Of a stretch of 64,000 nt of DNA, positions 19,544-24,434 are shown in pieces. Position 1 is the stretch's first letter; the number at the start of each line of letters is the position of its first letter. The notes beneath the pieces are model-generated. The model ran no database searches. It was not told the origin of the DNA and saw only the letters and a list, made by a program, of their open reading frames with translations. Source of the stretch: Candidatus Roizmanbacteria bacterium (GTDB lineage Bacteria; Patescibacteriota; Microgenomatia; UBA1406; GWC2-37-13); contig JACRPE010000007.1 of assembly GCA_016214055.1 (NCBI GenBank), positions 1-64,000 on the forward strand, in the 5' to 3' direction. Made by a program: the position numbers and the translations under genes.

Positions 19544-20302
19544 ATGTTTACTTATTCACTTGTGATAATCGGTTTTCTCATTGCGATTTTAGCAATACTT
19601 GTTCCCCGCATTTTGGTTATCATAGACCAATATGAAAGGGGAATAGTGTTAACTCTCGGAAAATATTCTCATACCCTTCAACCAGGACTGAATATTCTCG
19701 TTCCCATCGTCCAACGTGTTATCCGTACTGATATACGCATCACCACTTCCGATATTCCCTCTCAAGAAGTCATCACCAAAGACAATGTTCCGGTTGGCAT
19801 CAATGCCGTTGTTTACTTCCAGGTAATAAAACCGGAGGATGCAGTCTTAAAAATCCAGGACTACAACTATGCCATTACTCAATATGCCCAGACCGCACTT
19901 CGTGATGTAATTGGGGGAGTCGAGCTTGATACTTTGCTTGGTGAACGGCAAAAATTAGCCGATGAGATTAAAACTATCGTTGATCAGGAAACTACCACGT
20001 GGGGTATCGACGTAACAGCCATTAAAATTCAGGATATAGAAATTCCGGCAGACATGAAAAGGGTCATGGCCAAACAGGCAGAGGCTGAGCGGGAAAGAAG
20101 AGCAACCATCATACGTTCGCAAGGAGAATTGTCAGCGGCGGATAATTTGGATAAGGCCATGACCATGCTTTCAAAAAGCGGAGCCATTTCAATCAGAACG
20201 CTACAGACGATTGAGGCAACTACCGCTAATCCATCAAACACAGTCGTGTTCGCTCTCCCCATTGAAGTACTTGAGGGCTTTAGGAAGCTGGCAGGAAAGT
20301 AA
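19544..20302 (+). CDS. Slipin/stomatin-like SPFH protein
   Basis: A 252-residue membrane-anchored scaffold protein. An N-terminal TM helix (residues 4-26) is followed by the SPFH signature DQYERGIVLTLGKYSHTLQPGLN, the core VPVGINAVVYFQV, and a charged coiled-coil (AEAERERRATIIRSQGE, about 182-200). The C-terminus matches bacterial slipins. It organises membrane domains; no partner protease gene lies next to it here. A second SPFH protein is at 34457. Confidence 0.92.
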   Translation: MFTYSLVIIGFLIAILAILVPRILVIIDQYERGIVLTLGKYSHTLQPGLNILVPIVQRVIRTDIRITTSDIPSQEVITKDNVPVGINAVVYFQVIKPEDAVLKIQDYNYAITQYAQTALRDVIGGVELDTLLGERQKLADEIKTIVDQETTTWGIDVTAIKIQDIEIPADMKRVMAKQAEAERERRATIIRSQGELSAADNLDKAMTMLSKSGAISIRTLQTIEATTANPSNTVVFALPIEVLEGFRKLAGK

Positions 20303-20303
20303 T

Positions 20304-20975
20304 CTACTTAATCTCTTTCAAAAACTCTGTTGCGAGACCACCCGTGTTATTTGAAGTTTTATAAAACTCTTTCCAGACGACTACAATATTTGCCCCGTTA
20401 AAAATTGCTCTTTGGACTTCGCGAACTGAGTTACCTCCCGCAATTGACAACATGACATTGTAACTACTCAGTACTTTATTTATCTGTACGTATGGAATGG
20501 GTTTGTTTTTATTGAATTTTTCTTCATCCACTCCCCGGTGTAAGATGATTACATCGGGCTGTTTTTTTAGTTGGCGCAAGATTTTAACAGGATATTCGAT
20601 ATTCATCATATCAAGCATACTGTCAATCTTTTCTTTTTGGCAACTGTCAATAAAGCTATTGATTGTTTCAAGAGATGCCTGACCCAAACAGACAGCGGCT
20701 GATGCACCCGCATTTTTTACAAGCTGTACTTCCGTTTCCGCACGGTCCATCGTCTTCAAGTCGGCAACAATATAAGGCGCTCCGGACAAATCACCCTGAG
20801 TCCAATACTCCACAAGTTGTCTTATCACATCAACACCATATTCCTTGATAAGGGGAGTGCCCGCCTCGATGATAATCCGGTCACTTTTAGGTAAGGATTG
20901 AATTATGGAATAGGCATCATCTAAGTTTGAATTTAAAGCAATTTGAAGATATTTTTTTTTACGATTAAGAATCAT
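20304..20975 (-). CDS. HUMPS/OMPDC-superfamily TIM-barrel enzyme
   Basis: A 223-residue TIM-barrel protein. YIVADLKTMDRAETEVQLV contains the D-K-T-x-D active-site pattern of the orotidine-phosphate decarboxylase/HUMPS superfamily, and IAGGNSVREVQRAIFNGANIVVVW is the C-terminal phosphate-binding loop. IDMMN-like changes from pyrF (no DxKxxDI with PyrF spacing) favour a hexulose-6-phosphate synthase-like role, but the substrate is not certain. It lies 2 nt after trmD. Confidence 0.75.
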   Translation of the reverse strand: MILNRKKKYLQIALNSNLDDAYSIIQSLPKSDRIIIEAGTPLIKEYGVDVIRQLVEYWTQGDLSGAPYIVADLKTMDRAETEVQLVKNAGASAAVCLGQASLETINSFIDSCQKEKIDSMLDMMNIEYPVKILRQLKKQPDVIILHRGVDEEKFNKNKPIPYVQINKVLSSYNVMLSIAGGNSVREVQRAIFNGANIVVVWKEFYKTSNNTGGLATEFLKEIK

Positions 20976-20977
20976 AT

Positions 20978-21709
20978 CTATTTATACAACAAATCGGGTC
21001 GTTTATTCTTTGTCACCTTAAGTGCCTGTGCTTTTCGCCAGTCGTCAACACTTTTATGGTTACCGGAAAGCAATATTTCCGGAACCTTTTTACCTTCAAA
21101 TATTTCAGGGCGGGTATACTGAGGGTACTCCAAAAGAGTTTTTCCTTCAACCTTTGAAAAACTTTCCAACTGTGTAGCTTCCTCTCTTTTTAAAACACCG
21201 GGAATGAGGCGCGTGATTGAATCGGCGATGATGCAGGCGGGGAGCTCGCCCCCGGTTAATACATAATCTCCAACCGATATTTCTTCATCCACATATTCTA
21301 GCACCCGCTCATCCACTCCCTCATAATGTCCGGCAATGATGATGAGATGGTCAAGTTTGGAATATTCCTGAGCGGTCTCTTGCTTATAAGTCTTGCCCCG
21401 AGCAGAGGTCAAAATAATTTTTTGTTTGTCATGCTGAACTTGTTTCAGCATCTGTTTTGAAGAAAGATCCCGAAACAAGTTCGGGATGACATGGCAAAGC
21501 GCCTTATGTATCACGTCGACCCTCAACACCATCCCCGCTCCACCCCCATATGGCCTGTCATCCACGCTGCCATAGTCATCAATCGCAAAATCCCTCAAAT
21601 TGATTACTTCAATCTCAACCAGTTTTTTTTCCTGCGCGCGTTTCAGAATGCTTTCACTCAGGAAGCCGGAAATCATTGAAGGGAAGAGAGTAATAATGGA
21701 AATTTTCAT
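20978..21709 (-). CDS. trmD: tRNA (guanine-N1)-methyltransferase with an in-frame repeat insert
   Basis: It methylates G37 of tRNAs. The 243-residue protein has the SPOUT knot motifs IIIAGHYEGVDERVLEYVDEEISVGDYVLTGGELPA and the N-terminal MKISIITLFPSMI, from which I take the start at 21709; an upstream in-frame start at 21742 adds only poorly conserved residues. About 20 residues (around HVIPNLFRDLSSKQMLKQV) between GMVLRVDVIHKAL and KIILTSARG are encoded by a palindromic repeat at 21427-21491. The insertion lies in a surface loop, and the frame stays intact. Confidence 0.92.
   Translation of the reverse strand: MKISIITLFPSMISGFLSESILKRAQEKKLVEIEVINLRDFAIDDYGSVDDRPYGGGAGMVLRVDVIHKALCHVIPNLFRDLSSKQMLKQVQHDKQKIILTSARGKTYKQETAQEYSKLDHLIIIAGHYEGVDERVLEYVDEEISVGDYVLTGGELPACIIADSITRLIPGVLKREEATQLESFSKVEGKTLLEYPQYTRPEIFEGKKVPEILLSGNHKSVDDWRKAQALKVTKNKRPDLLYK
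21427..21491. repeat. Palindromic repeat translated inside trmD
   Basis: It opens with TGTCATGCTGAACTTGTTTC and closes with a GATGACA arm; the inner GAAACAAGTTCGGGAT mirrors the opening. It is 65 bp and is read in frame in the minus strand. The same family occurs inside valS (45212-45270) and before yidC (45743-45796). Confidence 0.85.
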
Positions 21710-21713
21710 GAGA

Positions 21714-22118
21714 TCAAAGAGAAATGATAAGAAATCCAGCAATCATAAAAACCCCTCCGATAATCGCTTTTTGAGTAAGCGGTTCTTTCAAAAAAACTGC
21801 TCCCATAACGAGGGCACAGAGAGGAAGAAAGAGTACGGCTAGGGTCGAAAGCACAGCACTTTCACTTCTTTGGATACCGGTAACATAAAAAAGTTGCCCT
21901 AAAAACCAAGAGGTAAATCCAAGAATAGCAAGTACAATCCAGTCCTGAAGGGTGAATTTGACCCTTTGCAGAAGAAATACCGGCATATAAAAAAATGCCG
22001 CAAATAAACAAGTTACTGCCGAAACCACAAATGAATTTTGGGTGGGAAAGAATTTGCGAATCAGGATAAGCTCAAGCGCCCACAAGAATTCCGCAATAAG
22101 AATAAATATTAACCCCAT
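21714..22118 (-). CDS. EamA/DMT-family half transporter
   Basis: A 134-residue protein with four to five TM helices, about half the size of a ten-TM DMT transporter. [32 protein letters not shown] and [27 protein letters not shown] are EamA-domain features. It probably works as a dimer like small multidrug-resistance-type proteins. TATAAT on the minus strand lies 6 nt before its ATG. Substrate unknown. Confidence 0.85.
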
Positions 22119-22124
22119 ACATGG

Positions 22125-22132
22125 ATTATACT
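22125..22132. promoter_or_regulatory. Overlapping divergent -10 boxes (EamA gene and yidD)
   Basis: ATTATA at 22125-22130 reads TATAAT on the minus strand, 6 nt before the EamA gene ATG. TATACT at 22127-22132 on the plus strand is 6 nt before the yidD ATG. The two -10 boxes overlap in a 20-bp gap, so one melted region could serve both directions. Confidence 0.7.
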
Positions 22133-22138
22133 ATACCT

Positions 22139-22378
22139 ATGCTTAAAAAAGCCATTCTGAAGCTCATCCGGCTGTACCAAAAAACGTCCTTTTTCCATGG
22201 ATATATTGCACGCTCTCTTTTCTTGACGGATAAAGTATGCCGCTTCACCCCCACCTGTTCACAGTATACTTATGAGGCGATTGAAAAATATGGAGTGATA
22301 AAAGGATTTTTTATAGGATTGGCCCGTGTCGTCCGCTGTCATCCATGGTCGAAGGGGGGACCTGATCCATTGAAGTAA
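22139..22378 (+). CDS. yidD: YidD membrane insertion efficiency factor
   Basis: A 79-residue protein with the YidD signature [19 protein letters not shown] (three Cys pattern) and [16 protein letters not shown]. It assists YidC-mediated insertion. yidD normally sits between rnpA and yidC; here it is 23 kb away from yidC. ATG 22139 is chosen over ATG 22121 because the TATACT box lies 6 nt before 22139 and within the longer frame. Confidence 0.93.
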
Positions 22379-22754
22379 GAGGGGAGGCAATCTCTTTCTG
22401 ATATTTTGTGTAGAAAACCACGGTTGAGATAAACAGAATAAAAGCTACACCGCCTACGACCGCCAACAATAGCTTGTATGTCTGAGTCTGATTTTCAGAC
22501 CGTTTAACTTCTTCCTTGAGCATATTATTCAGAAGTGTGTTTGTCTTCAGACAGTTTTGAGCCGTGGTATTGATTTCATCTTTTTTCTTGTTACAATCAT
22601 TTATTTCCTTCACATCTTTTATAACAATCGATTCCTGTGGCTGTCCGAATACATAATTAAGTTGCCCTTGGACTGCATAGGTCTGACGGGCTACTACAAG
22701 AAAAAATAGAACCATTGAAAGGAGTTTAATAGTTTTGAATAGAGTCTTGCTCAT
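22311..22754 (-). CDS. Secreted/membrane protein of unknown function
   Basis: A 147-residue protein with an N-terminal signal-like helix (residues 9-27), a polar region with two cysteines ([10 protein letters not shown]...AQNCLKT) forming a likely coiled coil, and a TM helix (about 94-115). Its last 22 codons overlap the yidD end in antisense (68 bp). I do not recognise the family; the Cys pair may be extracytoplasmic. Confidence 0.55.
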
Positions 22755-22781
22755 AGCTATACTATTATTATAGTCGATAGT

Positions 22782-24434
22782 ATGGAAAAAGCGATAAAAA
22801 AATATTCCGTATATTTTGTCCTGTTCTTTCTTTTTTGCCTGTCATTTTCAACCAGTTCCGATTTTTCTCAAGATTTAGGGCGGCATTTAAAACTGGGAGA
22901 AATCATCTGGCAGACAAGGACGATTCCAAGTATTAATTTATTTTCCTACACCCATACAGCTTTTCCTTTTATCAACCATCACTGGCTGGCCGAAGTATTT
23001 TATTTTTTATTGAAAAGCACGGCTGGTTTATTTGCCCTTCAAATTTTAAAACTAGGTCTGATATTTTTTGCCGGTTGGATAAGTATCAAATCAGGATTGG
23101 CAAAAAGTAGCTCTTTAATTGTTTTTTTTGTCTCATTATTCTTATTTCCCTTGCTGCTTGATCGTTTAGATATCCGTCCTGAGCTATTCGGTTTTTTATT
23201 TTTTTCTCTTCTATTATATATTTTATTTTTCCAAAAACAGAAAAAATTATATTATCTTGTTCCTTTTATTTTATTGCTTTGGGTGAACATCCACATCACT
23301 TTTATTTTTGGGATAGGACTCGTTTTATTAAGGCGAAAAAAACTTCTTTTACTATCACTTCTCGTGTTATTACTCAACCCCCATGGACTTACAGGAATTT
23401 TATATCCCCTAAACATCTGGAAGAATTATGGTTATACCATCGCTGAGAATCAAAATCTTTTCTTCCTCAAATCGGTCATGTTGAATCCTCTCATTCAATA
23501 TTTTCTATTAAGCATCCCTTTCATTTTTGTTGCGCTTTTTATCTTATTTGCACGGAAGAAATATACTTTTTTCATACTCCTATTAGCTTTTTTTGTTCTT
23601 CCTTTTTGGCAGATCCGCCATATGCCTTTTTTTGTGTTTGTTGCTATCCCAACAGTCTCTTATGCATATTCCCTGGTCTTATTTAGCTCAATGATAGAGA
23701 GTCGCATTGAACAGTCAAGGAATATTTTTTATGTGGTATTCATTTTGTTTTGTTTATTATTTTCTTCCGCATTTATTTTCAACACCTACTATCAAGTTTT
23801 TGATAAAAATAAGTCATTTGGCACCGGTTTTGATGAACCGCAGAAAAAGGCAACTGATTTTGTTTTATCATCAAAAATGAGAGGAAATATATTTAACAAC
23901 TTTGATATAGGGGGGTATGCTATTTATCGGTTATTCCCGACGTACAAAGTATTTGTTGACAACCGGCCAGAGGCCTATCCTGCAGAATTCTTTCAGAAAG
24001 TATACATCCCGCTTCAGGAGCAAAAAGAATTACGAGAAAAGATTTTCAAACAATATAACATTCATACCGTATTCTTTTCTCATACTGACATGACTCCGTG
24101 GGGGAGGACATTTTTGGATCAGATATTAAAAGAGCCTCAATGGAAGATGGTCTATCTTGATGATTCAATCGTCATATTGACTGATGAGGAATCGTTCCCT
24201 GATATAAGGTCAAATGATGCATACATGATGCAACTTGTTTCCTCTCAAGACAACTATCTTTCCCTTCTTCGACTTATCTCTGTTTTGTCCGGCCTGGGAA
24301 GGGGCGATCTGAGCAGACAGGCTTTTATAAAAGCTCAAAAAATAAATCCTTCATCATGTACCATACAGTGGGCTTCCTATGAAATTGACCCCACAAATAA
24401 GTCATGGGTATGTTCGTCATTTTTTTCCTTTTGA
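22782..24434 (+). CDS. GT-C-like polytopic membrane protein
   Basis: A 550-residue protein with about ten TM helices. The first loop, SDFSQDLGRHLKLGEIIWQT...IPSINLFSYTHTAFPFINHHWL, has the Asp/His/Trp pattern of GT-C-fold mannosyl/arabinosyltransferase-like proteins that use polyprenyl-phosphate sugars. The C-terminal soluble part includes VFVDNRPEAYP and a TPR-like tail. It may modify envelope sugars with carriers made by the isoprenoid genes; that link is inference. Confidence 0.65.
   Translation: MEKAIKKYSVYFVLFFLFCLSFSTSSDFSQDLGRHLKLGEIIWQTRTIPSINLFSYTHTAFPFINHHWLAEVFYFLLKSTAGLFALQILKLGLIFFAGWISIKSGLAKSSSLIVFFVSLFLFPLLLDRLDIRPELFGFLFFSLLLYILFFQKQKKLYYLVPFILLLWVNIHITFIFGIGLVLLRRKKLLLLSLLVLLLNPHGLTGILYPLNIWKNYGYTIAENQNLFFLKSVMLNPLIQYFLLSIPFIFVALFILFARKKYTFFILLLAFFVLPFWQIRHMPFFVFVAIPTVSYAYSLVLFSSMIESRIEQSRNIFYVVFILFCLLFSSAFIFNTYYQVFDKNKSFGTGFDEPQKKATDFVLSSKMRGNIFNNFDIGGYAIYRLFPTYKVFVDNRPEAYPAEFFQKVYIPLQEQKELREKIFKQYNIHTVFFSHTDMTPWGRTFLDQILKEPQWKMVYLDDSIVILTDEESFPDIRSNDAYMMQLVSSQDNYLSLLRLISVLSGLGRGDLSRQAFIKAQKINPSSCTIQWASYEIDPTNKSWVCSSFFSF

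What the first reader, a model, noticed from the sequence alone, without database searches (positions are those of the whole stretch)
22119..22138. One 20-bp gap serves two divergent leaderless genes with overlapping -10 boxes
Seen: TATAAT (minus) and TATACT (plus) overlap by 4 bp, each 6 nt from its ATG. Inference: a symmetric -10 promoter that fires in both directions from the same melted DNA, an extreme case of compaction.
Basis: seen in the sequence. Interest (0 to 1): 0.55.

Follow-up and report, generated by a model that had tools for sequence, protein, structure and literature searches.

The report
Two genes share one tiny promoter
Two neighbouring bacterial genes that run in opposite directions appear to be switched on from the same 20-letter gap, with no room for a leader on either message; many related bacteria keep a similar compact arrangement, a neat example of a kind of two-way promoter already known from other bacteria.

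Summary
The letters are as reported: eamA ATG (minus, 22118) and yidD ATG (plus, 22139) lie 20 bp apart; TATAAT(-) and TATACT(+) overlap by 4 bp, each 6 nt from its ATG. The register is absent from 100 shuffles of the window. The genome is a Microgenomates/Roizmanbacteria-like CPR bacterium with a leaderless promoter class: TATAAT 6 nt from ATG, pyrimidine at -1, no -35. In 33 of 74 yidD-bearing genomes of the order, yidD faces trmD (or eamA-trmD) across 30 nt or less; in 29 of the 33 both sides carry a -10, and in 21 the hexamers overlap. Best reading: a bidirectional promoter of the Warman/Grainger kind whose two start sites are the two start codons. 'Same melted DNA' is wrong in detail: the predicted bubbles share about 2 bp. 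The yidD side is weaker and less fixed than the trmD/eamA side, and a same-genus relative has a 44-nt gap with separate boxes. No RNA data exist here. It is a leaderless variant of a known kind.

The parts
22119..22138 (.). 20-bp gap between the two start codons; proposed bidirectional leaderless promoter
   Evidence: sequence; window register unique against shuffles; homologous short gaps in relatives
22125..22130 (-). -10 hexamer TATAAT for eamA(-trmD), 6 nt from ATG
   Evidence: facing-gene spacing of 6 nt in 30 of the 33 short gaps of the order
22127..22132 (+). -10 hexamer TATACT for yidD, 6 nt from ATG
   Evidence: kept in G001; over the order the yidD-side spacing varies 5-8 nt
22124..22136 (.). 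13-nt core GATTATACTATAC identical in the sister species G001
   Evidence: third-codon identity only 36% in yidD and 50% in eamA
21714..22118 (-). eamA: single-domain EamA transporter, 134 aa, first gene of the minus unit
   Evidence: Pfam PF00892
20978..21709 (-). trmD, tRNA m1G37 methyltransferase, 4 nt after eamA; probably on the same mRNA (inferred)
   Evidence: NCBIfam NF000648/TIGR00088 (scanned as the longer ORF 20978-21742)
20304..20975 (-). OMP-decarboxylase/hexulose-phosphate-synthase-like gene, 2 nt after trmD
   Evidence: PF00215
22139..22378 (+). yidD, membrane protein insertion efficiency factor, 79 aa
   Evidence: PF01809, TIGR00278

Best explanation
The gap is one bidirectional sigma70-type promoter without -35 boxes. 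RNA polymerase can engage it in either orientation through overlapping -10 elements (ATTATACT). In one orientation it starts RNA at the A of the eamA ATG (22118), giving a leaderless eamA-trmD message; in the other it starts at the A of the yidD ATG (22139), giving a leaderless yidD message. The two orientations cannot be occupied at once, so initiation alternates; the bubbles open away from each other and share about 2 bp. Shown: the letters, the gene identities, the genome-wide leaderless signature, and the recurrence of the arrangement in the order. Inferred: the actual start sites, activity in both directions, co-transcription of eamA with trmD, and mutual exclusion.
For: Leaderless class: hexamers with at least 5 of 6 matches to TATAAT peak 6 nt before ATG, 46 of 308 genes in a 356-kb sample of the own genome (reversed-hexamer decoy 10) and 44 of 340 in G002 (decoy 22). 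The 90 such genes show T or C at -1 (83%), TG at -15/-14 in part, and no -35. Both window promoters have T at -1. Conservation: 33 of 74 yidD genomes have trmD or eamA divergent within 30 nt; 29 of 33 have a -10 on both sides (shuffled gaps: mean 3.0, maximum 9 in 1000); in 21 the hexamers overlap. Nine genomes share a 14-nt gap that is 10-14 of 14 identical although TrmD is only 52-72% identical. The sister species keeps the 13-nt core. General: in about 2 Mb from five genomes, 14 of 316 divergent pairs have good hexamers on both sides within 8-60 nt (decoy 2); 6 overlap (decoy 1), one of them with the same ATTATACT and 21-bp register between two other genes.
Against: No TSS or RNA data. G002, same genus, has a 44-nt gap with separate hexamers; 25 of the 74 genomes have the facing gene further than 30 nt away and 16 have none in the stretch held. 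The yidD side is weaker: 4 of 33 without a -10 of at least 4 matches, and spacing spread over 5-8 nt, so yidD may have a 1-2 nt leader or another promoter in some species. The window promoters lack the TG at -15/-14 of their class. The close/apart state changes at least 18 times on a weakly supported TrmD tree.
Confidence: 0.72

Rival explanations
1. One-way promoter: only the eamA/trmD side is a real promoter; the yidD hexamer is a by-product of the inherent near-symmetry of TATAAT, and yidD is expressed from a start inside eamA/trmD or only weakly.
For: Over the order the trmD/eamA side is fixed (spacing 6 nt in 30 of 33; 32 of 33 with at least 5 matches) while the yidD side varies.
Against: 29 of 33 keep a yidD-side -10 together with the facing one against about 3 expected from shuffles; in G001 TATACT is kept at exactly 6 nt from the yidD ATG while flanks diverge.
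Confidence: 0.17
2. Chance in AT-rich DNA: the hexamers are not promoters, and both genes are transcribed from within each other's coding sequence with ordinary leaders.
For: The stretch 20001-24000 is 38.9% GC, so TATA-like hexamers are common; other exact or near matches to the register have no gene pair.
Against: Shuffle controls, decoy controls and conservation.
Confidence: 0.06
3. YidD starts at ATG 22121 (six residues longer), so the plus message would not be leaderless from TATACT.
For: The ATG is in frame.
Against: The sister species has no in-frame start there and relatives align from the MLKK/MKK start.
Confidence: 0.05

Closest known systems
Bidirectional promoters of prokaryotes (Warman, Grainger and colleagues; PMC12825309 abstract, introduction and discussion read; PMC10268837 several sections read; the 2021 founding paper is not held)
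   Same: Near-symmetric -10 read in both orientations, divergent TSSs 7-25 bp apart, polymerase exclusion; the predicted 21 bp lies inside that range.
   Different: E. coli prefers 18 bp, with 10 and 23 also common; here 21 bp, and mostly 15, 23 and 25 in relatives. Both messages would be leaderless, so the whole intergenic region is the promoter.
Leaderless genes with a TANNNT box about 12 bp before the start codon (PMC3160421, passages read)
   Same: Same -10 to start-codon spacing and same inference of a leaderless message.
   Different: The groups named in the passages I saw do not include CPR; here two such genes share the box.
Divergent leaderless pair prpD/Rv1129c of Mycobacterium tuberculosis (PMC3898074, figure legend read)
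   Same: Two divergent genes with mapped starts at start codons on both sides.
   Different: The passage seen does not say that the -10 boxes overlap or how long the gap is.

Membership tests
Bidirectional promoter (Warman/Grainger) | Divergent TSS pair 7-25 bp apart | not testable with these tools
   Predicted 21 bp from hexamer positions; no RNA mapped
Bidirectional promoter (Warman/Grainger) | Reciprocally overlapping -10 elements on opposite strands | tested here: met
   4-bp overlap, A at -11 and T at -7 in both directions
Bidirectional promoter (Warman/Grainger) | The commonest (not obligatory) 18-bp register with T at -18 | tested here: not met
   21-bp register; -18 is A (plus) and G (minus). 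The class allows other registers (PMC12825309)
Leaderless gene | -10 box about 6-7 nt before the start codon, no Shine-Dalgarno | tested here: met
   both genes, 6 nt; no SD-like motif before eamA or, by eye, in the 20 bp before yidD
Leaderless gene | Message begins at the start codon | not testable with these tools
   needs 5'-end mapping

The most novel reading that the evidence does not exclude
Across this CPR order a bidirectional, doubly leaderless promoter of 14-25 bp between yidD and trmD (or eamA-trmD) is under selection as a unit, and its mutually exclusive firing balances a tRNA-modification transcript against a membrane-insertion transcript; because both messages are leaderless, the -10 register alone sets where both proteins begin.
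Probability: 0.25. Interest if true: 0.6.

Novelty: new variant of a known kind. Interest (0 to 1): 0.4.

Why it matters
If both genes start where predicted, gene boundary, promoter and transcription start collapse into 20 bp or less, near the lower limit for a divergent pair. The yidD/trmD gaps give dozens of natural variants of one bidirectional promoter in different registers, a ready set for testing how -10 overlap sets direction and polymerase competition in an uncultured group for which my searches found no promoter work on this point.

Tried and rejected
A -35 element on either side: nothing TTGACA-like at the right distance, and the class as a whole shows none. The first genome pattern used the wrong 5-nt spacing and hit a site with a long ORF on one side only; corrected. 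A preferred 18-bp register as in E. coli: only 1 of 29 yidD-type pairs by the best-hexamer rule, with 18 possible as another reading in 7 of 33. A single inherited register: rejected, since the order of the two hexamers changes at least 8 times on the TrmD tree, though that tree is weakly supported (6 of 54 inner branches starred). The pair list lacks the window pair itself, apparently because the overlap filter dropped yidD (it overlaps the 3' end of the ORF 22311-22754); one search uses a looser filter and lists it. The shuffle control held the start codons fixed while the observed count allowed a choice of ATG within 12 nt of the facing gene's start, which favours the observed count slightly. 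Paper searches for leaderless with CPR/Patescibacteria, for leaderless with bidirectional or divergent promoters, and for yidD with trmD found no description of this arrangement; only that library was searched.

Full report
Observation. The sequence at 22116-22141 reads CAT, 20 bp, ATG. The minus hexamer TATAAT (22125-22130) and the plus hexamer TATACT (22127-22132) share 22127-22130, and each ends 6 nt before its ATG. The minus gene is a single-domain EamA transporter (134 aa), followed after 4 nt by trmD and then by an OMP-decarboxylase-like gene; the plus gene is yidD (79 aa). The TrmD search over named genomes puts the window with Candidatus Microgenomates/Roizmanbacteria records (best 66%, 57% and 60% identity). 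The genome has 1.205 Mb in 26 contigs.

Chance. The exact register occurs once in the window and in none of 100 shuffles. In the genome there are two exact places, of which only the window has long ORFs on both sides. With one mismatch allowed there are 7 places against 3 for the reversed control pattern.

Leaderless promoters in this genome. In 356 kb of the own genome and 400 kb of G002, hexamers with at least 5 of 6 matches to TATAAT are most frequent exactly 6 nt before the first ATG: 46 of 308 and 44 of 340 genes, against 10 and 22 for the reversed hexamer. A lesser excess is seen at 7-8 nt. The 90 genes align to a class with T at -17 and -15, G at -14 (51%), TATAAT at -12 to -7, C or T at -1 (83%) and the A of ATG at +1, and no -35 signal. 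A pyrimidine before a purine start is the usual initiator preference of bacterial polymerase (recalled), so this supports +1 at the ATG. The window's two promoters have T at -1 on both sides, T at -17 on both, T at -15 on the minus side only, and no TG at -15/-14. The 16S 3'-end motif with the anti-Shine-Dalgarno letters is present once, so leaderless and SD-led translation probably coexist (inferred).

Relatives. A search of 83 genomes of the order (own included) found yidD in 74, and the surroundings of all 74 were read. The nearest divergent trmD or eamA start lies within 30 nt in 33, at 31-60 nt in 4, further in 21, and was not found in the stretch held in 16. Among the 33, a -10 of at least 4 matches with A at 2 and T at 6, 5-8 nt from the start, is present on both sides in 29 (1000 shuffles of the gap: mean 3.0, maximum 9); the hexamers overlap by at least 1 bp in 21 and abut in 7. 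The facing-gene spacing is 6 nt in 30 of 33; the yidD spacing is 6, 7 or 8 nt in 28 of the 29 scored. Hexamer-based start separations are 13 (3), 15 (12), 18 (1), 21 (2), 23 (6), 25 (4), 26 (1). Nine genomes share a 14-nt gap (for example CATGATAGTATTGTACTATG) with 10-14 of 14 letters identical at 52-72% TrmD identity. In the sister species G001 the core GATTATACTATAC is unchanged although third codon positions are 36% (yidD) and 50% (first part of eamA) identical. In G002, same genus, eamA is absent from the gap, trmD faces yidD directly across 44 nt and the hexamers are separate. So the shared promoter is common but labile; on a weakly supported TrmD tree of 57 rows close/apart changes at least 18 times and hexamer order at least 8.

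Not only yidD. In 1.956 Mb of stretches from five genomes of the family (G000, G002, G027, G086, G011), 316 divergent pairs were called; 73 allow ATG-ATG separations of 8-60; 14 have at least 5 of 6 on both sides at 6-8 nt (decoy 2), 6 of them with overlapping hexamers (decoy 1). The six are the window pair; a cytidylyltransferase-like/DUF4012 pair in G011 with the same ATTATACT and the same 21-bp register; a ruvC/M24-peptidase pair in G086; and three further pairs of the own genome, among them HAD/PAP2 and a pair with tatD.

Mechanism. With +1 at 22139 and 22118, -11A and -7T are right in both directions. The -11 bases of the two promoters are neighbours (22128, 22129). Polymerase should not be able to sit in both orientations at once. 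In E. [quoted passage not shown]). Whether competition matters here is unknown.

Known kinds. Bidirectional promoters are defined by divergent starts 7-25 bp apart with reciprocal -10 overlap (PMC10268837, several sections read). Leaderless genes with a TANNNT box about 12 bp before the start are long known (PMC3160421, passages). A divergent pair with both messages leaderless is shown in M. tuberculosis (PMC3898074, figure legend). The window joins these: a bidirectional promoter whose two start sites would be two start codons. In the held library I found no description of this in CPR bacteria or between yidD and trmD.

Verdict. The missing piece is RNA 5'-end data.

Noticed in passing
window 21431-21487, inside trmD: A dispersed palindromic repeat (GAACTTGTTTC, three copies in the window, 0.07 expected) sits in frame inside trmD, where the window protein has 12 or more residues that four relatives lack; it resembles in-frame palindromic elements of other bacteria (recalled).
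   Followed up: partly
window 22754(-)/22782(+): The next divergent pair, 27 bp apart, has a near-palindromic gap (CTATACTATTATTATAGTC) with -10-like hexamers toward both starts.
   Followed up: no
window 3724(-)/3727(+): Divergent ORFs only 2 bp apart; any promoter of one must lie inside the coding sequence of the other.
   Followed up: no
L006 (G001), eamA: In the sister species eamA has lost its middle: about 68 N-terminal residues run into the last few residues and the stop, with promoter and start kept.
   Followed up: partly
L256 2923(-)/2944(+) (G011): A different gene pair (cytidylyltransferase-like and DUF4012) uses the same ATTATACT in the same 21-bp register.
   Followed up: partly
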